Shown here: in pieces, positions 49,294-61,519 of the stretch | Numbering within the stretch: position 1 is the stretch's first letter | Layout: the number at the start of each line of letters is the position of its first letter | From: Pestalotiopsis fici W106-1 | Taxonomy: Eukaryota > Ascomycota > Sordariomycetes > Amphisphaeriales > Sporocadaceae | Reading direction: 5' to 3' | Length of the DNA: 64,000 bases | Assembly (NCBI RefSeq): GCF_000516985.1 | Contig: NW_006917091.1 | Coordinates: 6,611,521 to 6,675,520 of the forward strand | Made by a program: the position numbers and the translations under genes | The notes under the pieces: model-generated | The model's input: only the letters and a program-made list of their open reading frames with translations | Databases searched by the model: none | What the model was told of the DNA's origin: nothing

Positions 49294-49881
49294 TCAATAT
49301 GGAACTTTGATCTGCATCAACTCACGACGCTTCCTGTTGTAACTATAGTACCCGTTCGCGCCCTCAATGACTTCACCGCGTTTGTCATAGTTCAAGTACT
49401 CGTTGGATACAACTTCGGGATCCTCAACAGGACTGCGCTTGTTGTTGTAATGATGGTACTCATCACCGTCCTGAATCGGATTACCGCGCTTCGCATAGTT
49501 CAAGTACTCGTTGGATACAACTTCGGGATCCTCAACGGGACTGCGCTTGTTGTTGTAATGATGGTACTCGTCACCGTCCTGAATCGGATTGCTGCGCTTC
49601 TTGTTGTTGTAATGATGGTACTCGTCACCGTCCTGAATGGGATTACCGCGCTTGTCATAGTTCAAGTACTCGTTGGACACCAGTTCCGGATCCTCGAGCC
49701 GCTTGCCATGATCAATCTTGACGGGACTGCGCTCTAAATATTGCCAGGGTCAACAGCTTTTTCTGATCATGGAGGTCTACCAAACAATGACTTGTGACTT
49801 ACCGAGATTGACCGAGGGAATGGCGATTGCAGAAACGAACCCGACTGCGGCCAAAAGGCAGTACAGGCTGGAAGGCTGCAT
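49294..49881 (-). CDS. Secreted RiPP precursor with seven Kex2-bounded repeat peptides
   Basis: Exons 49803-49881 and 49294-49733, 172 aa. Residues 1-20 are a signal peptide (MQPSSLYCLLAAVGFVSAIA). After a short leader the protein is cut by Lys-Arg sites at residues 37-38, 54-55, 72-73, 89-90, 108-109, 125-126, 144-145 and 161-162. Between them lie seven segments of 17-19 residues. Type Y (residues 39-55, 91-109, 127-145) ends with the core NEYLNY; type H (56-73, 74-90, 110-126) ends with EYHHYNN; the last segment (146-162) ends with GYYSYN. Every core contains Tyr-x-x-Tyr next to the Kex2 site. This matches fungal RiPP precursors such as UstA, AprA and GigA in layout, though the cores differ from those known to me. 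The adjacent UstYa-type genes support this strongly. The product and its activity are unknown. Confidence 0.9.
49378..49698 (-). repeat. Internal 51-57 bp repeats encoding alternating core peptides
   Basis: Units on the minus strand: type Y at 49648-49698, 49486-49542 and 49378-49434; type H at 49594-49647, 49543-49593 and 49435-49485. Order is Y-H-H-Y-H-Y. The two H+Y pairs form a 108-bp period; the blocks starting near 49390 and 49498 (+ strand) agree at nearly every base over about 90 bp, including third codon positions. A diverged seventh unit (49327-49377) follows. Confidence 0.85.
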
Positions 49882-50612
49882 TGTGATTCTTGGGTAGAGG
49901 ACTTGATGGTGTATTGCAAAGAGAGTGATGCTTTGGAAAGTTGAAGACTATGAATTCAGTCAATAGTTTACGAAATGAAAGCGATGTCTTATATATTTAA
50001 TGTCTCAGCCAGGCATCGCTCTGCTGTATTCATTCTGTGCCTCTTACGCTCTTCCATGGACAACATAGCTTCCATGTCAACATGCCTCGAAAAGTTCCGT
50101 CTTGCTCAAGCCAAGGATTCCGCACTTTGCCACTGTTGGGGTCTGTACACGAAAATGCAGGGTGAAGAAGCTGAATGGGATCTTTCATCCGATACTCAAG
50201 CAGCCACCAAATATGCATTTTGCACGACATGCACCGCTGAATGATGCTACATTCACTCCATGTAGTGAGAACAACAGGTGATGCTTGATTTGGTGGATCA
50301 AAGTCTCGTGGACCCTTGATCTTCTCTTAGCCCATCCCGTTATGCATGGCGGAAAGAGCCCTGCATACATTGCGGCTGGTCTAGATGCAGCATACAGGAC
50401 GGAATCGCTGAGCTTTTGTATGTAGGACTTGTTGGAGTAAGTTACAAAAGATGCCTCGATATGTCTGTGTGTACTCTCCCTGGTTTCCACATCATACGTT
50501 ACGTGAGGGGCCCCAATTTGTCGCTTCAAGACTTTTGTGTTTTCCTTCTCCTCAGTCTCTTTCCCACATCCAGTCTCTTAGCAATTCTGCCAAAGTTTCA
50601 CACAGATTCGAC
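49882..50612. promoter_or_regulatory. Shared divergent promoter of precursor and first DUF3328 gene
   Basis: 731 bp between the two start codons. The precursor side has a TATA box (cttatata, 49988-49995). The other side is C/T-rich near 50530-50580, a usual fungal core-promoter trait. Co-regulation is inferred from orientation. No zinc-cluster-type inverted CGG pair was recognised. Confidence 0.55.
49988..49995 (-). promoter_or_regulatory. TATA box of the precursor gene
   Basis: tatataag on the minus strand, 107 bp before the ATG at 49881, followed by a C/T-rich, T-rich leader. Confidence 0.55.
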
Positions 50613-51659
50613 ATGTGGACCATTCCCAAGAGATCGCGGGCGTTCTCGCTGCCAGCTTGCGAGCCTCTTGATGGTGATCCCCTGATAGAGAAAGAGGGAA
50701 TGATACCAGTCTCTGCTCCGCATCAATATCGCTTCAACAGCTATCCAGCATTGTTTTTTCACCTGTCTGTTCTGTTTATATATTCCATCATCTTTGCCAT
50801 CATCGTTTTTGTTACCTTGGACTATGCCCCAAATCATGCACGTCGCCAACTTGTCTATTGTCAGTATTTTAAACCCGACAATGGCCAATTCATGAGTTCC
50901 ACTACTGACAAGAAAAAGCTCCCGCCCAGGGTGCCATATCTTGGGAGACCATGTTTCTGGATGCCCCTCTCAAGGGATCCAGCATCTATGTGGGAGACCC
51001 CAAGCCAGAGATCGACGATGCCTGGGGCGACCTCGTGCGGTGTGAGTAATACATACATGCCCAAGAGCTATTCGAGATTAAAATTCAGTTCTTGACCATC
51101 ATAAAGACGCAAACACCCGAGTCCAGGCGGAAGATCTTGAACGCATCAATCGCACATCAGTTCCCCTGAACGACGCCGAGGGCGGTTTTCTTGTCAACCT
51201 CAACGTCTTCCATCACCTTCACTGCTTGAACAAAATTCGCAAGCAGCTCTACAATGACTACTATCAGGACTGGCATAGCCCTTCGGCGCAACTAGAACAT
51301 GTCAATCATTGCATCGAATACCTCCGTCAGGTAGTCATGTGTAATGCCGATATTACCATGCAGGTAAAGTATTTGCGTATGTCGCCTGTGATTGAAATTT
51401 TGTATCGCTGACTCGCGCGTTTAGACCTTTGATTGGATCGACGACTACCGGCGCCCATGGCCGAACTTCAAGATCCAACATGAATGCAAAAATTGGGATG
51501 CTTTGACGGACTGGGCGAAAGAGCACAGTGTGCCGAGTCTCATAGGGCCCATTATCACGCACCCCGTCCTAGGTATGTTCTCTCGGTTCCACCAGCTACT
51601 CAAAAAACTAAAATTTGATTCAAATAGGAGTTTCGTGGAGAGAGGATGACATTCACTAA
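50613..51659 (+). CDS. DUF3328/UstYa-family membrane oxidase-like protein 1
   Basis: Exons 50613-50859, 50919-51041, 51089-51363, 51425-51572 and 51628-51659 (274 aa). A single membrane helix (about residues 45-69, PALFFHLSVLFIYSIIFAII) precedes the family entry motif YSPAQ (82-86, split by intron 1) and PKPEIDDAWGDLVRF. Both family motifs are intact: H165-H-L-H168-C169 (VFHHLHC) and H194-V-N-H197-C198 (EHVNHCIEYLRQ). Then MCNADI, WPNFKIQHECKNWDAL. UstYa/UstYb-type proteins catalyse oxidative macrocyclisation or related oxidations of fungal RiPP cores; the HxxHC motifs are thought to bind metal. It is the gene next to the precursor, divergent from it, and the best candidate for core cyclisation. 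All five exons keep phase. Confidence 0.9.
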
Positions 51660-52593
51660 GGTCGAAGATTTATCCTACAGATGCGGACGGGCAGGTTTGC
51701 GATGCTGTTTGGCAGAGCGATTGCACTATCTATGTAGACTTTCCCTCATGAAATCAATCCTTGGTAATTAATAAATGTACATGTTTGGAAAATGGCTTGG
51801 CTTCAGATCAGCTGTTGGGTGAAATTTACACCAAGTAATAGATTTGTGATTCTAAGCATACATTCTCGGCTTGACTAGAATAGTGATCTCCTGCTCGTCG
51901 ACTCTCAACAACCTGAATCTGACTGAAAAGCCTAAATGCTACCGGCATTGAGAAGCAACAAGTAGACGCCACTATCAAGTGAATGTCTATTGTTACATCA
52001 AGATGTGACATTCCAAATGTCGAGTCATATGATACTGTTGCATAGTGTCGTATAGAGTTGCTCCATGTTGTTTAGAGCTTATTGATTGGTTACGTATCGA
52101 TGCGTGGCAATAGGACGGGACGGCCTGCAAAATGTGTGATTAAGCAAACAGTCCTATCCCTACTTCCAGTCCCGACAGGTGCAACTTTAGATAAGCGGAA
52201 GATGATCTTTGCCTTTCTTGACCGCATGTTATAGCACATGTTCGCAGTTTTTCGAACCCTAGTTTTGTTGTGCCCATACCCCGCTCAGTGGACGCACATT
52301 TGGTTACACATGCACGAGTTGTAGCTCGTAGCTGAAGTCGGGCGCGGAATATGCCCGTTACCAACAATTCGAGATTCTTATGCGCTGCTACAAGGAACAA
52401 CGGTCCATAAGACAGACCGTCTGTTGCCGACATGCACTCTGTGCATAGCCAAGTCCGGTGAGATAGCCCTAACTATAACCGTGTGTCAACGGTAGGACTT
52501 TGTTCAGGGAAGTGCTGTGGTGATGTGATCGAATCTGGATCGTGGCCATTCTTGGGAGGCGAATAGCAAGTGGGAGCTGTGGTCATAGACATC
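51660..52593. other. Intergenic in peptide cluster
   Basis: About 930 bp between DUF3328 genes 1 and 2. No gene supported. Confidence 0.55.
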
Positions 52594-53401
52594 ATGTCTC
52601 CTGCCTCTTTTCCAAGTTCTAGTTTGGCCGCAAAAGCGCCATTATTTTCCATGAGGCGCATACCGTTATCCAAGATGAAGGGCTCTCGACTGCCAAATAC
52701 CCAAACGCTACTTTCCATCTTTTCCATATCCATACTGGCAATTATAGTTGTGTTTTTCTTGCGCAGTGATATTCCTTACACACCTACTCTTACGGTCAAG
52801 TCTCACTTGATCCAGGACTACCACCATATTGTCCAAGATGTTGAAAAAAGCTCCATTGTCATGAACTTCCGCGAGCACGCCGAGTTCAAGAACCTCAGCC
52901 ACGAATACGACATTTACTGGAAGAACACTAGGCCTCCAAACGGCGGCTACTTTGCGTGGCTGGACGAGACTGGGACGCGCAGACGCGACGGCATCTCCAT
53001 GTTTCATCAACTCCATTGTCTTGTCATGCTGAGGGAAGCCATGCAAGGCCTAGGAGAAGAAATCCAGTCACTAAAGGCTATGAGGCGAGACACTGCCCAT
53101 GAGGACCATGCTATGCACACAGAACATGACGATCTCCACTGGTTGCACTGCTTTGATTATCTGAGACAGGTATGTTATTTCGTACGTGCGTATAGCCTCC
53201 AGGACGGGGACTGATATTCTTTTTGCCGCATCGTAGGCCATACTATGTAATGCGGATTCGACGTTTGAGCCACACCTGATGAACAGCAACGGAAAGGACA
53301 TTGTTGATGGCATGATTGAACGGGACTGCAAGGACTGGAGTCTTCTGTACAAAGCTTCTGAGAAATCGGATTTCCAATCTCTGGTACTTGACAATGAATA
53401 A
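52594..53401 (+). CDS. DUF3328/UstYa-family protein 2
   Basis: Exons 52594-53169 and 53237-53401 (246 aa). Membrane helix at about residues 38-56 (TLLSIFSISILAIIVVFFL). Motif 1 is H138-Q-L-H141-C142 (MFHQLHC) and motif 2 is H182-W-L-H185-C186 (HWLHCFDYLRQ), followed across the intron by AILCNADSTFEP. It is the most divergent of the intact copies: the SPAR/SPAQ entry motif is absent, and between the two motifs it carries an extra acidic/His-rich stretch (TAHEDHAMHTEHDD). The C-terminus keeps only RDCKDW of the usual H-x-C..W block. This resembles the UstYb-like branch more than the UstYa-like one (inference). Probably a membrane-bound oxidase acting on precursor peptides. Confidence 0.87.
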
Positions 53402-53792
53402 AATCTAATCATCTTTGAGTCAGTGAGATATGTTTCATGTGAAGTGTAGCCATACTAAACATGGACTTCCTTGCGCAATAGACGTGCCAAGTAGGTAGGT
53501 AAACAATTTTGGAGAGCAGACGGAGAATGTTTCTAGCGTTCCTTTTCTTTTTTTCTTTTTTCTTTTTCTTTTCCTCCCCTCTGCATAAAATACTTGAAAG
53601 CAATTGCAGAACAACCAATAACATGGATTTGCGGCAGATTTTACGAATAGAATACTCGCCAAGCAGGCATGAGCTGCCGTGCGGTCGAGCCAATCTCAAC
53701 CAAACCATTCTTCATTTCACAGCCCGTCAAGACTGAACCACTTTCCCATCAAATTCATTGCGTTTCCCAGTCCTTAAATCAACGGTTTTCAA
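53402..53792. other. Intergenic in peptide cluster
   Basis: About 390 bp with a T/C-rich run at 53543-53580. Presumed promoter of DUF3328 gene 3. Confidence 0.55.
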
Positions 53793-54668
53793 ATGGGTCA
53801 GCATCACAACGTCGGAATGAGCTGTGAAAATGAAGACACGGACAGAAGCAGTAGCGACTCTGTCACTGATGCCCTGCTCGATAAGCATGGCAGCTCGAAT
53901 CATAGTAATGCCGGAAGGAAACGTTTCATTCATTCCTTCAGCTTCTTTGCATTTGGGCACGTTTCTATCGTCTTATTACTTGGTGTTTTGTGGTATTTTA
54001 CCATGAGTGCCATTCATCGTCCTCATCCATACGGAGTCAGCCTGATTCACAGTCTGTTGCCCATGACATTTTCCCAACTTGGCAAAGTCTCTAAATACTG
54101 ACGGTTTCATGGCCCAGGTCCTGCCCGAGTAGCAGTCGACTACAAGCGAACCGCAATGGACGTAAACATTGATTCTGTGAGCATGTTCAAGGGATTCCCA
54201 AGCGTCGAGGTCGATGAGGCATGGAACAATGTGCTTCAATGTGAGGAGATATTCCATGTGATGGCGGAAAGAAACTGCGCTGACACAATCTTAGATCGTG
54301 CACTAGCAGTCTTTCCTGACGAATTGACAGACCAGGAATCCATCGCCATAGAAGACGGTACTGGTCGTGTTCTTGTCACCCTTGGTGTCTTTGATGGCCT
54401 GTATTGCTTGGATGTGATGCGAAGATTTTCCTTTCGCGAATTTTATCCGGATGAATCGCAAATCTCTCCCCTGGAAATGATGGATTGCGTCGATACCGTC
54501 CGCCAGTACATCATGTGCTATGGAGACATCTCTCTCACCACCTACGACTGGAAGCGAGATCATCTATTGCCATGGCCAAACTTTCGTGTCGATCATGAGT
54601 GTCGGGATTGGGATGGCATCCTCAAGTGGGCAATTGCCCATCGCGCTTCTCGAGAGATGCTGGCCTGA
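53793..54668 (+). CDS. DUF3328-family protein 3 with lost histidine motifs (putative pseudoenzyme)
   Basis: Exons 53793-54006 and 54118-54668 (254 aa). A membrane helix (about 47-67, HSFSFFAFGHVSIVLLLGVL) is followed by SPARVAVDY and PSVEVDEAWNNVLQ, which fix the family. At the first motif the sequence is D164-G-L-Y167-C168 instead of HxxHC; at the second it is E191-M-M-D194-C195. All four expected His are gone, while both Cys and flanks (GVF..LYCLDVMRR, DCVDTVRQYIMC, LLPWPNFRVDHECRDWDGIL) remain. The frame is otherwise intact, so this looks like a maintained but catalytically altered homolog rather than a dead gene. The donor (gtgcca) is poor; it was chosen because it restores SPAR with a tactgac branch site. 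Another donor would change residues 70-75 only. Confidence 0.82.
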
Positions 54669-55881
54669 GTGCCTACATGTTTTCATGCTATAATTACTAC
54701 ATAATCTAGGTATTTATGGAGGCACATATTGAGGCAATCACCAGGGTAGCCAACTAGAATCCTCTGTATGACAATAGGAAGACCTGTTTGTTACCTTGGA
54801 TCAGATTTACACGGATAGTCTTGAGCTACTTTGCCGTGTGGATTGGAGTAAGCTCCTCGGGCACTTTGTCCACGCCACCAAACATTACTGACAACTTGCT
54901 GAGAAAGTCCGATTTGCCGATTCCTTGGTGCGGGAGTATAGCTGTCTTGGCAGACTTGAAAGTTCGTGACTGGATAGTGCTGTTGGCCCAAGATGTAAGC
55001 AGAATGACGAGGCAGCTCATTGGAAGTGCCGGCAAATGCCAATGGCTCTTGGCTAGAGTCAAACCTTTTAGCCATGATTTGGTTCATTCTGATACATCAA
55101 TTGACCTGAGCTCGATCTTCATAGCGCATGCAACGAAAGATGATCAAGCAAATATTTTCTTTTGTCACTTTCATTAGGATAATAGACTTTTGGCTGCTGC
55201 ATGATCAAGGCATAACGTTGCACCTCATTCGTTGCGTGCTATTGCATGCCGTTGTTGCATTCCCTGTGATTCGCGATCAAGGGCAACCATTGTGAGACTA
55301 CTATAGCTTTCTCTGCAATGTCGCCAACTGCGTGTGAGTGGTTAAAAAGGCCATGCAGGCAAGCGAGCAGGTCATTTGCCGGCATCAATCGCTACGACGG
55401 CGCGGAACTTTTGGCGGTTTGTGCGGCTGAACGACCGTGCATATGTACGTGATACCCTCCGCAGTGACAGAATATTTCCATTCAATCATGTGAGAAGACG
55501 AGAAGACCATGCATCGCGTCATGTACGTGACAGTCTCTAGACCTTGTGCACTCTGCTGGCCCGCGATGATACGAATGATGATGCCAATCACTTCACGGGA
55601 TGATCCACGCATTTCAGAAGTGGCAAGATTTTCAGCTCATCAAGGTTTGTCGGCCCAAGGATTCACAAGAGGAGGCGGGATTCCCAGGTTTGCTCCAAGA
55701 CCGTGCGATAGAGTCTCGGTGAGCGTGGTGGGACCATGGCTTCAATATGACAGCGATATGTCGTGGGCTTTTCTCTTTGCGTTTATCTGAAGCCTCTATT
55801 TGGTCTTTACTTGCCTTTCAACGCAAGCACCGGCTCTACCAAACCGTCCCTTGTTCTCAGATCTGAAAAAATAAATAAAAA
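54669..55881. other. Intergenic in peptide cluster, possible small minus-strand ORF
   Basis: About 1.2 kb. Short frames occur on both strands. The best is 55385-55612 minus (75 aa, ATG start), which has no recognised domain or signal peptide. No gene is called. Confidence 0.5.
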
Positions 55882-56820
55882 ATGTTTGGATCTGTTATTC
55901 ACAAGACTGGCACAGCCTCTATTTATTCTCAATATCACAAGGTCACATCAGCAGATGATGACATATCGCAAGAATTTAGTGGCAATCATGAGAACAGAGG
56001 GTTTTTCAAACACTTTCTGTCAAAAAGATGGGCGATATGGGCAGTGGTTCTGCTACTAGGCTCTGCACTTATCGTGATTTGGGCGATACAGGGCTTCAAT
56101 AATGCAGAAGTCTTCCTTCCGAACCGTACGTTGAGTGTCAACATATGGGGCTGTCTAATACTGACGCTTCTAGTCCAAACGGTTGTCATCCATTTCGAGG
56201 CAAACGACATCTTTATGGCTATGCCATCTCCCGAGAGCGATGCGGCGTGGGATAACTTGATGCCAGGTCAGTCTTTGTTTTCATCTACCGTTGCTTCAGG
56301 ATCCTCAACTAATTCATGAATCGTCTAGATGGCAGAGGTTTTGTTCTGGTGGATGATCCACAACAATATAATCTGCGCGCAGGTATCCCGACAGATGGTG
56401 GCCCAGACCGATATGGAGTGTCCATGTTCCACCAGCTGCACTGTCTTGTATGCCACGCTCTCATCCTCTATTTCCAGATTGAGGGCTATGCTCATTTTCA
56501 CACAGGGGCTCATTCGTGATGGATATTATTCTGCGCTCAATCATCAAGATCCAACCATAATAGGAATCAAGACTTCCACGGACGAGTCAGCATTGAGGCA
56601 TCACGGAGAGCATATTGGTCATTGTTTCGACTACATCCGCCAGGCTATCATGTGTAATGCAGATATGACACTGGAGTGGGCTGAAGTGAGTCCCTCTGGT
56701 AAGGTCCTTGCCAGTGTTGATGGATGGGGGATCCCTCATACGTGTCGTAGTTGGGATGATGCTGTCGAGTGGACGTTGAAGCACAAGGCGCCGTCAACCA
56801 ATCATACAGGAATAATATGA
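55882..56820 (+). CDS. DUF3328/UstYa-family protein 4
   Basis: Exons 55882-56125, 56174-56266, 56329-56447 and 56506-56820 (256 aa). The membrane helix is at about 50-69 (WAIWAVVLLLGSALIVIWAI). The SPESDAAWDNLMP stretch marks the family. Motif 1 is H147-Q-L-H150-C151 (MFHQLHC), motif 2 is H188-I-G-H191-C192 (EHIGHCFDYIRQ), then IMCNADMT and HTCRSWDDAVEWT. Introns are 48, 62 and 58 bp with canonical ends; intron 3 falls right after HCL, the same place as in gene 5. The sequence after motif 2 (LEWAEVSPSGKV) differs from the WPNF form of gene 1. Both motifs are intact, so activity is expected. Confidence 0.87.
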
Positions 56821-57515
56821 TGTAGCAATAAAAGCTAGAACTACCATGAAAGATTATGCCGTTGCCAAAGTAGACCCTGCAAGGCTCTCAAACGTATTGC
56901 TGCTGCAGCCACCACTCTGAAAGTCCAATAAGATGCTCACCTAGACATAATGGTATAGACTCTGATACTGTCATACGTATTGGTAGAAGATAATTAGGTG
57001 TTTGGACAAAAGGACGTTGGAGCGACATCGGTCAAATCCAAGCAGTGATACTTTCAGTCTAGATGGTAGTATCAGATGGAATAGCGCCACTAGGACTTTT
57101 GCAAGCGGTGAAAAGTCACGGCAGAGAGGCTGTCTTTAGTGATGTGATGGTACAAGAGCGCATGCATCTGCATGCTGCCAAGAATTGTGCAAGCACCCAG
57201 TCCATCCTTGGGGTCCCTGAGGCATATATCATAGACACACAGTGGGTGTCGTCCTACAATCTGTGACGATGCAGATACTTGGAGTGATTTGTGCCCTTGC
57301 TTCTGTCAATTTGCCTCTTGAGCGGTGGAAGATTTCCGCTATTCGGCCATGCACAGGGTCAATCAAGGTCAGAGGATAGCCATGGCGTTTTTGTCCCACG
57401 ACTCTCTTGAAACTCGTCTCACCTTTCTGCCAGATAGAACCCCAAGAGCCTGTTGCACCCTTGGAGCTATGGTATACCACATCTTGAAGTCATCACCGCC
57501 CCGAGTGTTGTCAAA
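56821..57515. other. Intergenic in peptide cluster
   Basis: About 700 bp. No supported gene; presumed promoter of DUF3328 gene 5. Confidence 0.55.
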
Positions 57516-58556
57516 ATGAAACTGCTGGCAAAGGCTTTGCATCACTGGTCAGCTTTGTGCGAGAGACAGGTATGCTACTCAGCGGTTGTTCATGATGCAA
57601 AGAGGAAAATACGACAGACCAAGTACATCTACATTGGCATCAACGTATGCCTGTTACTCATCTATCTTGCAACGTTTGCTTATGCATCATGGGCCATGAT
57701 TACCGAATATCATGAGGACGGTTTGATCTATTGTATACCGTCAACACCAAGACTATAGCCCCGAAAGCTGCTAACGCTGATAGCGCCGGCAAGATCAGTC
57801 GTCTCCTATGAAGAGAGACCATTTAACACGACATGGCTCGATCCTATACGCCAACTTCCGAGCCTGCCAGTCGATCGCGCGTGGAGTGCTCTGGCCCAGA
57901 GTGAGTACAGCCTTGCTCTCTCCTTGTCCAATGCCCCCGTACTAATTCCGTTGGATTAAACAGACCCCAATATTGTCGTTCAAAAGGCCGACTTGGAGCG
58001 CGTCAACAGAACTTCAGTTCCGCTGAGAGACGGTTCGGGGTATCTCGCATCTTTGGGTGTTTTCCATCAGCTCCACTGCGTTGTTGGTTACCTACTCCCC
58101 ATTGTCCAAGTGTCTAGTCTGACAAATCAATCCAGAACTACATTCGAGAGTATGCTTTTCCTGAGTACTATGTTCTCGAAGACCGAGAGTCTCGACGTGA
58201 TCATATACGTATGGAAACAATTATACCCTCGCCGTTGGTTTACCGCTTCTGACAGGGCTTGTTATAGTGCACTGTATTGACATGCTGCGCCAAATCATTA
58301 TGTGCCACTCCGACATCACCATAAACACCTATGAACGAATCCGTCGTACAGGAAAGCTCGAAGCGAATCGCACAACCCTTCATGAATGCAGGAGGTGGGA
58401 TCCGATTGCCGAGTATGCTCGTCAGCATTGGCCATCTCACGGTGGTCCATTTCTGGAAAATCCACAACTAGGTAAATGAACCCATCTGTTTCGTCTTTGC
58501 CATTTCTATCACGTAACGTTGTTGTTTCAGCATTGACAGTCCAAAGAGAGGTATGA
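57516..58556 (+). CDS. DUF3328/UstYa-family protein 5
   Basis: Exons 57516-57732, 57784-57900, 57964-58082, 58136-58208, 58268-58471 and 58531-58556 (251 aa). The membrane helix is at about 37-59. YSPARSVVSYEE (72-83, split by intron 1), PVDRAWSAL and the RTSVPLRDGSGYLASLGVFHQLHC block (about 127-150) are typical; motif 1 is H146-Q-L-H149-C150. Intron 4 ends at 58267 (ttatag), which gives H174-I-L-H177-C178; the stronger-looking cag at 58257-58259 would instead delete the first His. The tail has HECRRWDPIAEYA. A last intron (58472-58530) is optional; without it the protein ends at a stop at 58477-58479 (245 aa). Close in form to protein 1. Confidence 0.88.
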
Positions 58557-59098
58557 TTCTAATATCCATCTCAGGTCTCATATACCCAACACACGTAAAC
58601 GAGACTCAAGCTTAGGAACCTTGGCGACACGAAATAAGAGGCGCCTAATGGAAAACATGTACACTAGTTCTTGCAAATTGAGTTCAGATAATATATTAAA
58701 GTTGATAGACATGAATTTCGAGACATCTCCAGAAAGCCACTTGCACTTATTCTGGCTAAGAAGTGTAAATACAGCGATATGATAGCTAATCGTCTACCTT
58801 GACTACATGGGTTAAGTCTCTAGACTAGCATGGTGGGCACTAGGAGACTTGGCAACTTTTGATACGTTCTTTATTCAGCCGCACGAGTAGATCCGGACGA
58901 CCAAGCTCTATGAGTTCTTACATCCAAAGGTCAGACATTGCGACTATATATACGGCAGTCTCTATATAGCACCGAGGTTATATGACTCGTCTCTGCCTCT
59001 TTTACCGTTCTACATCTGCTGGTATCCTCGCAGTAGCTGGGATGAACCCCTAGCATGTTAAGCAACCGCGGCTCCTACGGAAGCACATTGATGTAAAC
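58557..59098. other. Intergenic between peptide cluster and HET gene
   Basis: About 540 bp. AT-rich. Contains a gactatatatac element (58938-58951) about 150 bp before the HET start that could act as TATA box. No gene. Confidence 0.5.
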
Positions 59099-61519
59099 AT
59101 GAGTGTCCGTCCTTTAATCAAGCGGGTAAAGAGCACACCCGTGGGTGTCCACGATAACCGGCTTTATGTCGCTGGCGCAAGAGTCAGACCACGCCGCCCT
59201 GCCAGCTACAACAGGCGTCTCGATCCGACTAAGCGCGAGATCAGACTGCTCAGTCTTTCGCCTCGCAATGCTCACGACAGGAGACCCGAGGGCAAGCTCG
59301 AGACGGCCTCCCTACTGGCCGAAGATATCGAGTTCATTGCGCTGTCGTACGTGTGGGGCGACGCCGGGATCACGTCCGAGGTCCTCGTGGACGGCGTGGT
59401 CATGGACGTGACGGTGAATCTGGCCGCGGCGCTGTGGTACTTTAAAGAGTTTGACATGTTGCGCGGGATTCCCGATGGGCGCCCGCTGCGCATATGGGTC
59501 GACGCCCTCTGCATCAACCAAGATGATCTTGTGGAGCGGGCTCAGCAAGTCACATTCATGAAAGATGTTTACGGCCGGGCCAAGCACGTTTTCACCTGGT
59601 TTGGACCCCCTGATGAAAAGAGAATCGATTTAGCGCTGCGGATCATAGATGGAACTGTCCAAACTTTCAAAGATATGGGTGGTGTTGATCCACAGATGGG
59701 ATCAACAAGTGACGAAGACGAGCCCGAGGATGATGGAGAGTCCGATCACGATGAAGAGTCCGATCACGATGAAGAGTCCGAGCATGATGAAGAATCCGAG
59801 CATGATGAAGAATCCGAGCATGATGAAGAGTCCGAGCATGATGAAGAATCCGATGTGGTGGAAGAGTGGGAAGAGGATGAAGAGGATGAAGAGACAAATT
59901 CCGAGAGTGGATCAAGCAGTGCCTCACAGGACTCCTCAAAGGGAGTGGACACTGAACGGATGGAAATCTTTGTCAAAGCACTCGATAGCATATCTGCACT
60001 ACATGGAGATGAGACTTGTGGTGGATTGTATGGAAATAAAGCGTGGGAGGCCATACATGAATTGGACGCAAACGTCTACTGGAAACGAATGTGGGTGTAT
60101 CAGGTGAGTAGTCGTTGGAATATTTTTCTGTTTCTTCTCCTGTCTCTCCTGCCAGCCGCTCGCTTGGAGTACTGGCTTGCACATTAACGATACTGACCTT
60201 GATTTGCCGAGTAGGAGATGGTCCTTGCTGCCCAGGACCAAGACTGCCACCAGTTCTTGTGCGGGAAAACACGCATCGCCATGCGAGATTATACCCAGTT
60301 TGCCAGTCTCTGCAAACCCTTTGCGCGGAATCTAAGTAGGCCACTAAAGATAGCAGCGCCCAAAAACATCGACAAGGCGCTCTGGGAGAAGCTGTCCGAC
60401 GGTTTATTCTTCCACATTGGCAACGTCATGGAGGAAGTTGATGAACTACAGCAGCTGTTGCCCTCGGACGCCACAAATTCCCTGCCCTCCAATGTGCTCG
60501 ATCTCTCCCGCAAGGCCACGGCCACGAATCCTCGCGACATGGTCTACGGACTCGCCGCCGTGCTGCGATTACCTATCCAGCCCGACTATACTGCCCCAGT
60601 TCGCAATGTGTACCTAGAATGGGCTCGACTCGAGCACGAGCGACTCGCTCATGACACGGCAGCTCTGCAGCGATTCATGGTTGATATGCTACAACACTCT
60701 TATCTCGGCGCTGAAGCATGGTGGCTGGAAGGAGATGAGGGCGTCGTCGGACTGCCGTCGTGGCTACCGGACCTGAGCATGCTTTATCATACCGAATGTC
60801 CAGTCCCGTGGGAAGGAGCCTACAGGTTTTCAGATCCCTTTGACAATGATGATGAGCCGGCCTCCTCGACGGCGCCGTTTCTCCTGTCTGCCGAAGGCGT
60901 CATGAGTGTCCAAGGCGCGGTATGCGGCGTCGTCTCGGGGTACTTTGAGTGTACACCACCTTACGACGACCTCATGGGACGCATGAAACGCTTTGCTCGT
61001 GCCATGCGCAAAGTCATGGCCCTCATTATTAATTCCACAGAGGCCTTGCAGCAGGACTACAGAACGGGCTGCAGCCTGGAGCAGGCCATGATGTTTACAA
61101 TGTTGTGGGGAATCAATCCGTACACGACCGAGATACTCAAACCAAAGGACGCACTTTACATGTGGGAGTATCTTAATGACTTGATCAACCTTGTCGCCGA
61201 GCATGGCGAAATCGAGGCCCTATCTCTAGTGTCGACGCCAGAGATTGCTCTCGCGCTGGCGTGGGCCATGGATAATTTTGGTAAATATAAAATCTTCTGG
61301 ACAGACACTTGCTATGTTGGCATTATCCCGCTCTCGATTCAGACCGGAGACTATATCTGCGTGCTCGACAGTTGTGGATTTCCGGTGGTAATGAGGAAGA
61401 CCGACGGAGGAGGCTGGATTCACGTCGGAGCATGCTATATTTATGAAATATCGGGTAATAACCCACTCGAGGTGATCAAACGGGATGGGCTAGAGGGTCA
61501 AACGTTTCACATATACTAG
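59099..61519 (+). CDS. HET-domain protein (heterokaryon incompatibility type) with acidic repeat
   Basis: Exons 59099-60103 and 60215-61519 (769 aa). The HET domain begins near residue 77: IEFIALSYVWGD, then LRIWVDALCINQDD, then QQVTFMKDVYGRAKHVFTWF, all hallmark blocks. After it comes a very acidic insert (about 204-280) with six S-D/E-H-D-E-E hexapeptides (about 214-249). The domain resumes with YWKRMWVYQEMVLA across the intron, and the C-terminal part has NPRDMVYGLAAVL, then WLPDLSM and an end block WIHVGACYIYEI typical of HET C-termini. HET proteins mediate non-self recognition and cell death on hyphal fusion, or other immune-like responses; the partner is unknown. Start is ATG at 59099; no frame break seen. 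Confidence 0.92.
59738..59845 (+). repeat. 18-bp tandem repeat, six copies, in HET gene
   Basis: Unit ga(g/a)tccga(t/g)ca(c/t)gatgaa, six in-frame copies encoding E-S-D/E-H-D-E. Codon-level variation (gat/gag, cac/cat, gag/gaa) is arranged in blocks, suggesting stepwise expansion. Confidence 0.9.

What the first reader, a model, noticed from the sequence alone, without database searches (positions are those of the whole stretch)
49294..58556. Probable undescribed fungal RiPP cluster: one multi-core precursor and five DUF3328 (UstYa-like) genes
Seen: a signal-peptide protein with eight KR sites and repeated short peptides, divergent from five consecutive same-strand genes that each carry a membrane helix and DUF3328 sequence. 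Known: ustiloxin (ustA/ustYa/ustYb), asperipin-2a (aprA/aprY), phomopsin, victorin and epichloecyclin clusters pair such precursors with DUF3328 oxidases. Inference: Kex2 frees the peptides and the DUF3328 proteins cyclise or oxidise them. The cores here (YLNY, YHHY, YYSY) match none of those I know, and five DUF3328 genes around one precursor is many. No methyltransferase, tyrosinase, transporter or regulator is visible, so the chemistry may rest on DUF3328 proteins alone.
Basis: partly seen in the sequence, partly recalled or inferred. Interest (0 to 1): 0.95.

Follow-up and report, generated by a model that had tools for sequence, protein, structure and literature searches.

The report
Fungal ribosomal-peptide cluster with inactive-looking oxidase
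A plant-dwelling fungus carries a small gene cluster that probably makes ring-shaped peptides cut from one repetitive protein, and one of its five copper-enzyme genes has lost the copper-binding residues while keeping the rest of the protein.

Summary
Window 49294-58556 encodes a 172-aa Kex2-repeat precursor (8 KR sites, 7 units, each with Y-x-x-Y), divergent from five same-strand genes that all exceed Pfam's UstYa/DUF3328 cut-off (67-193 bits). The precursor equals PFICI_01942 of Pestalotiopsis fici W106-1; no other homologue was found (1 of 875 candidates). No tyrosinase hit lies within 570 kb. So this is a dikaritin-type RiPP cluster, predicted from sequence only. "Five DUF3328 genes is many" is not new: phomopsin has five. 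None of 120 other DUF3328 proteins examined lacks both motifs. A second Kex2-repeat cluster in this genome has its own damaged DUF3328 (H, R, N, Y). Best reading: U1, U2, U4, U5 are copper oxidases that crosslink Tyr cores; U3 is an intact copper-less partner. Expression, product and U3's role are untested.

The parts
49294..49881 (-). Precursor gene (KEP), 172 aa, = PFICI_01942; one intron 49734-49802; units A (..NEYLNY[DA]KR x3), B ([GS]NPIQDGDEYHHYNNK(K)R x3), C (GEVIEGANGYYSYNRKR x1)
49882..50612 (.). 731-bp divergent intergenic region between precursor and U1 (possible shared promoter; inference)
50613..51659 (+). U1, DUF3328/UstYa, 268 aa, 4 introns, both HxxHC motifs intact; overlaps the annotated PFICI_01943 (195 aa, a different and shorter model)
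   Evidence: (193.1 bits)
52594..53401 (+). U2, DUF3328/UstYa, 246 aa, 1 intron, divergent, both HxxHC motifs intact
   Evidence: (67.0 bits)
53793..54668 (+). U3, DUF3328/UstYa, 251 aa, 2 introns; all four copper-site His replaced (D, Y, E, D), both motif Cys kept; annotated as a shorter PFICI_01945 (152 aa)
   Evidence: (129.5 bits)
55882..56820 (+). U4, DUF3328/UstYa, 256 aa, 3 introns, both HxxHC motifs intact
   Evidence: (109.1 bits)
57516..58556 (+). U5, DUF3328/UstYa, 251 aa, 5 introns (one weak donor GTTGGT), both HxxHC motifs intact in the spliced model
   Evidence: (150.9 bits)

Best explanation
A compact dikaritin-type RiPP cluster. The precursor enters the secretory pathway, Kex2 cuts after KR and frees seven peptides, each with a Tyr-x-x-Tyr core of one of three sequences. 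Membrane-anchored, lumenal DUF3328 proteins U1, U2, U4 and U5 use the binuclear copper site formed by their two HxxHC motifs to crosslink the cores oxidatively, most likely through the tyrosines. U3 keeps the fold but not the copper ligands and most likely acts as a copper-free partner (heterodimer subunit or substrate-holding subunit). Shown: gene structure, family membership, repeats, motif status. Inferred: expression, secretion, cleavage, crosslink chemistry, U3's role.
For: Precursor and five PF11807 genes. KEP plus DUF3328 is the published signature; 1758 of 7878 KEPs have DUF3328 genes within 15 genes (PMC7329392 passages). Copper chemistry of HxxHC(x)nHxxHC in CctR, loss of activity on His or Cys to Ala, dimers, and cited copper dependence of AprY: PMC12435403 (whole main text read). 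U3: D, Y, E, D at columns that are 100, 100, 96 and 100% His in 107 hits of 190 aa or more, while 17 of 21 other conserved columns stay; all four ligands lost among 8 changed of 26 columns, P = 0.005. U1, U3, U4 and U5 share the first two intron phases. U3 lumenal model (annotated 152-aa part) pLDDT 85.8, with the two motif helices present, as in the U1 part (pLDDT 83.0).
Against: No expression, mass or genetic data. The precursor has no homologue to show selection on the core. U2, U3 and U5 have no close orthologue among the listed hits, so selection on U3 as a working protein is argued only from its open frame, introns and retained residues. No DUF3328 heterodimer is reported in the passages and paper I read; CctR is a homodimer. 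DUF3328 members do other reactions too (hydroxylation, halogenation, desaturation), so crosslinking of Tyr is a choice among several.
Confidence: 0.65

Rival explanations
1. Same RiPP cluster, but U3 is a decaying or functionless duplicate of the U1/U5 type: the oxidases alone make the product and U3 is on its way to becoming a pseudogene.
For: U3 has the second longest branch of the five (1.98) and no close orthologue; the annotated model is truncated to 152 aa.
Against: Frame open over 251 aa with plausible splice sites, shared intron phases, both motif Cys and 17 of 21 other conserved columns kept, confident fold. A decaying gene should lose columns at random rather than all four ligands (P = 0.005). 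A second damaged DUF3328 stands in another KEP cluster.
Confidence: 0.3
2. U3 is still an enzyme with a different metal: Asp, Tyr, Glu and Asp in place of four His make a carboxylate site, and U3 does another reaction.
For: Three of four substitutions are carboxylates at the ligand positions and both Cys remain.
Against: No other member lacking both motifs was seen among 120 others; no biochemistry.
Confidence: 0.05
3. The precursor is an unmodified linear secreted peptide precursor (pheromone-like or signalling KEP) that only happens to lie beside the DUF3328 genes.
For: About 78% of KEPs have no DUF3328 gene nearby (PMC7329392 passages).
Against: Immediate divergent neighbour of five DUF3328 genes; Tyr in every unit, as in published substrates; no Pfam pheromone match at E <= 1; in the same survey almost all putative mating factors and pheromones lacked DUF3328 genes nearby.
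Confidence: 0.1

Closest known systems
Phomopsin cluster (dikaritin; precursor plus five DUF3328 genes)
   Same: KEP precursor plus five DUF3328 genes (PMC7329392 passages)
   Different: Phomopsin core YVIP and tyrosinase-dependent (same passages); here Y-x-x-Y cores and no tyrosinase hit within 570 kb on the contig. Whether any phomopsin DUF3328 lacks copper ligands was not tested.
Asperipin-2a cluster (aprA, aprY, aprT, aprR)
   Same: Multi-Tyr core (FYYTGY), Tyr ether bicycle, four-gene cluster without tyrosinase (PMC6514808 passages); AprY is copper-dependent (cited in PMC12435403)
   Different: One DUF3328 and also a transporter and reductase; here five DUF3328, with neither of the latter found in the ORFs scanned (partial test).
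CctR / DUF3328 copper enzymes
   Same: Family, N-terminal anchor, HxxHC(x)nHxxHC in U1, U2, U4, U5
   Different: U3 has none of the four His.
Second KEP cluster of the same genome, C10:~223000-229100
   Same: KEP (YLVKYEGD repeats) with four DUF3328 genes, one with H, R, N, Y at the four ligand positions
   Different: Unrelated repeats; by eye its damaged gene is of another DUF3328 type than U3, which would mean independent loss (not put in the tree).

Membership tests
KEX2-processed repeat protein (KEP) | Secreted protein with repeated units separated by KR | tested here: met
   Eight KR, seven units of three types; signal peptide by inspection only
Dikaritin RiPP cluster | DUF3328/UstYa genes next to the precursor (class-defining per PMC12048977 passages) | tested here: met
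   Five PF11807 genes over cut-off, the nearest 731 bp away
Dikaritin RiPP cluster | Two HxxHC motifs in the DUF3328 proteins | tested here: met
   Met in 4 of 5 (U1, U2, U4, U5); not met in U3
Dikaritin RiPP cluster | Tyr-containing core | tested here: met
   Y-x-x-Y in 7 of 7 units
Dikaritin RiPP cluster (2016 wording) | Tyrosinase | tested here: not met
   Nearest of 87 genome hits on this contig is C1:6088170-6088355, over 570 kb away. Later definitions dropped this, and asperipin-2a lacks it
Dikaritin RiPP cluster (2016 wording) | Methyltransferase; transporter or peptidase | tested here: inconclusive
   S41 peptidase: 3 genome hits, none on C1. Methyltransferase and transporter: none in 30 ORFs scanned; the MFS genome search scored only 9 of 866 candidates
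Dikaritin RiPP | Isolated crosslinked peptide | not testable with these tools
   No chemistry available
Active DUF3328 copper enzyme (for U3) | Four His of HxxHC(x)nHxxHC | tested here: not met
   D, Y, E, D
DUF3328 fold family (for U3) | PF11807 match | tested here: met
   129.5 bits, cut-off 25

The most novel reading that the evidence does not exclude
U3 is a copper-free DUF3328 pseudoenzyme that pairs with an active DUF3328 (U1 or U5 type) and fixes substrate choice or crosslink position. The same solution arose separately in the YLVKYEGD cluster of this genome, so multi-DUF3328 RiPP clusters would work as heteromers of live and dead copper subunits.
Probability: 0.33. Interest if true: 0.68.

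Novelty: new variant of a known kind. Interest (0 to 1): 0.55.

Why it matters
It is an unstudied candidate for peptide crosslinking by DUF3328 proteins alone. It also makes an open question testable: why fungal RiPP clusters keep several DUF3328 genes. If some are copper-free partners, gene counts overstate the number of oxidation steps, and genome-mining rules based on two HxxHC motifs will drop real cluster members.

Tried and rejected
Rejected: 'five DUF3328 is unusual' (phomopsin has five). Left open: single changes at the first His of the second motif in three other genes of this genome (L020 E, L021 S, L027 R). They keep the other His that were read and may be edges of unspliced exons; in one similar place (L033) splicing by eye gives His. 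I did not resolve the three. Six of 120 other hits also have only one exact HxxHC, so loss of one motif by the pattern is not rare; loss of both is what sets U3 apart. Led nowhere: precursor homologues (itself only of 875 candidates, own genome, itself only); U3 homologues by single sequence (itself only of 299 candidates); PDB by sequence (two unrelated matches at E 0.046 and 0.062) and by fold (none at E <= 0.001); papers naming four of the locus tags (none) or four core strings (none); a DUF3328 pseudoenzyme in print (15 of 103 papers listed: the three listed that hold DUF3328 do not hold 'pseudoenzyme'); two 2025 DUF3328 papers are not held. Conserved synteny could not be tested: no fungal genome collection was available. 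I only saw that two pairs of Delitschia hits share reported contig lengths (P0010 with P0083; P0011 with P0066), a U1-type and a U4-type in each pair by tree. The link of damaged DUF3328 genes to KEP clusters with four or more DUF3328 genes is weak (both of 2 within 9 of 36 genes, P = 0.057), and the grouping was chosen after seeing the data. The place of U2 in the tree is unsure: the program warned of its long branch.
Full report
What is there. Gene models made from the sequence give a precursor on the minus strand (49881 to 49294, one 69-nt intron, 172 aa) and five plus-strand genes U1-U5 (50613-51659, 52594-53401, 53793-54668, 55882-56820, 57516-58556). All modelled introns are GT..AG, 48-69 nt. 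The precursor model is identical to an annotated protein, PFICI_01942 of Pestalotiopsis fici W106-1; U3 contains the annotated 152-aa PFICI_01945; U1 overlaps the 195-aa PFICI_01943 (96% identical over 72% of U1). The species is inferred from these matches; the genome held here (51.7 Mb, 20 contigs) is unnamed. A 2026 paper places this strain in Pseudopestalotiopsis (PMC13237565, passages).

Precursor. Eight KR sites cut it into a leader, seven units and a tail. Units are of three types: NEYLNY (x3), DEYHHYNN (x3) and NGYYSYN (x1). Every unit has a Y-x-x-Y; shuffling residues within units never reproduced this in all seven (0 of 20,000), and did in 68 of 20,000 when one unit of each type was used (motif chosen after looking). 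No Pfam family matches above its cut-off. Searches found only the protein itself: 1 of 875 candidates in the protein database, and its own two exons in the genome. The database search needs shared 5-residue words, so a diverged precursor could be missed.

DUF3328 genes. All five exceed PF11807's cut-off. A search with their alignment gave 421 proteins at E <= 1e-10 among 3215 candidates, of which 120 were listed; the named ones are ascomycetes and basidiomycetes, and apart from the window's own record no named one is a Pestalotiopsis. U1 has relatives up to 66% and U4 up to 64% identical over part of their length, whereas the top-scoring foreign match of U2 is 33%, of U3 39% and of U5 34% identical. 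U2's best relative seen is a paralogue in the same genome (L031, 41% over 178 aa). A tree of 112 proteins puts U1, U3 and U5 in one clade (support 100/98) and U2 and U4 in another (100/100); U2's branch is very long and its place unsure, and a U3+U5 pair has weak support (91/41). Two pairs of Delitschia hits with equal reported contig lengths combine a U1-type and a U4-type, which hints at an older pair to which others were added; that is inference.

U3 lacks the copper site. PMC12435403 (whole main text read) reports for CctR that HxxHC(x)nHxxHC binds two coppers at a dimer interface and that His or Cys to Ala abolishes activity; it cites copper, oxygen and dimer dependence for AprY and ApnU. 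U1, U2, U4 and U5 have both motifs. U3 has D, Y, E, D in place of the four His. In an alignment of 107 hits (119 listed hits other than the window's own, minus 12 shorter than 190 aa) these columns are 100, 100, 96 and 100% His. Of 121 hits examined, the window's own U1 and U3 records included, 114 have two HxxHC, 6 have one, and only U3 has none. U3 keeps both motif Cys and 17 of 21 other columns conserved at 75% or more (81%; hits range 67-100%, lower quartile 86%; U2 keeps 15, U1, U4 and U5 keep 19). So U3 is a little more eroded than most hits, but loss of all four ligands among 8 of 26 changed columns has P = 0.005 (columns are not independent). Its two introns have the phases of the first two of U1, U4 and U5. 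AlphaFold of the annotated 152-aa part gives pLDDT 85.8 with helices 59-74 and 87-104 carrying the two degenerate motifs, matching helices 83-97 and 109-129 in the U1 part (pLDDT 83.0). No solved structure resembles it by these searches.

The rest of the genome. 48 exon-level PF11807 hits were found (a lower bound), and I fetched roughly 10-kb stretches over the ones outside the window. A profile built from the hits read the first motif in 36 genes: 34 have both His. The two exceptions are U3 and a gene at C10:226043-226249 with H, R, N, Y (gene count made by hand from its rows). The latter stands in a second Kex2-repeat cluster (repeats of YLVKYEGDEEAAKDKR) with three other DUF3328 genes in which no loss was seen; one ligand of one of them was not read. 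Three further genes show a single change at the third ligand position that I did not resolve. Two more loci pair a repeat protein with one DUF3328 gene: GLYMM repeats near C1:976 kb and HHKGRG repeats near C2:5191 kb. Both damaged genes lying in the two KEP clusters with four or more DUF3328 genes is suggestive only (P = 0.057, grouping chosen after the fact).

Neighbourhood. The nearest tyrosinase hit on the contig is over 570 kb away, although the same search does find tyrosinase hits about 7 kb and 11 kb from the GLYMM and HHKGRG repeat genes. No S41 peptidase hit is on the contig. Pfam scans of 30 ORFs, 29 in the window and one just beyond it, found F-box, Mod_r, CCDC90, HET, Nup84, clathrin, pyruvate-carboxylase-type and LIM domains, nothing biosynthetic for peptides. 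Intron-rich genes could be missed, so absence of a transporter, methyltransferase or regulator is likely but not proven.

Place in the literature. KEP plus DUF3328 is a known arrangement: 22% of 7878 KEPs, on average 1.7 DUF3328 genes each, five in phomopsin (PMC7329392, passages). The P. fici genome paper counts PKS, NRPS, terpene and related genes, and its main text holds no DUF3328 or ustiloxin (PMC4320822, passages). No paper in the library holds the tags PFICI_01942 to 01945 or the four core strings searched. A pseudoenzyme in this family was not found in print (search only).

Verdict. The unexpected part is an intact DUF3328 gene stripped of its copper ligands inside the cluster, with a second, apparently unrelated case elsewhere in the genome; that makes it a variant worth testing. 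Expression, product, crosslink type and U3's role are all inference.

Noticed in passing
G000:C10:~223000-229100 (L014 and L015): Second KEP cluster: repeats YLVKYEGDEEAAKDKR with four DUF3328 genes, one of them (226043-226249, +) with H, R, N, Y at the copper positions.
   Followed up: partly
L032:6232-6825 (C1:~976 kb): Secreted-looking repeat protein with ELDGLYMM units beside one DUF3328 gene; a tyrosinase hit lies about 7 kb away at C1:968294-968971.
   Followed up: no
L013:7721-8266 (C2:~5191 kb): Secreted-looking repeat protein with EPHHKGRGKKAGAKR units beside one DUF3328 gene; a tyrosinase hit lies about 11 kb away at C2:5179223-5180113.
   Followed up: no
G000:C12:538987-547335 (partly L017): Three DUF3328 genes about 3 kb from one of only three S41 peptidase hits in the genome; no repeat precursor passed the scan there.
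   Followed up: no
window 59054-60184: HET-domain ORF directly downstream of the cluster, with an acidic repeat (EESEHD) inside the matched stretch.
   Followed up: no
window 53793-54668: The public annotation of U3 (PFICI_01945, 152 aa) starts at residue 100 of my model and so misses the exon with the hydrophobic anchor.
   Followed up: yes
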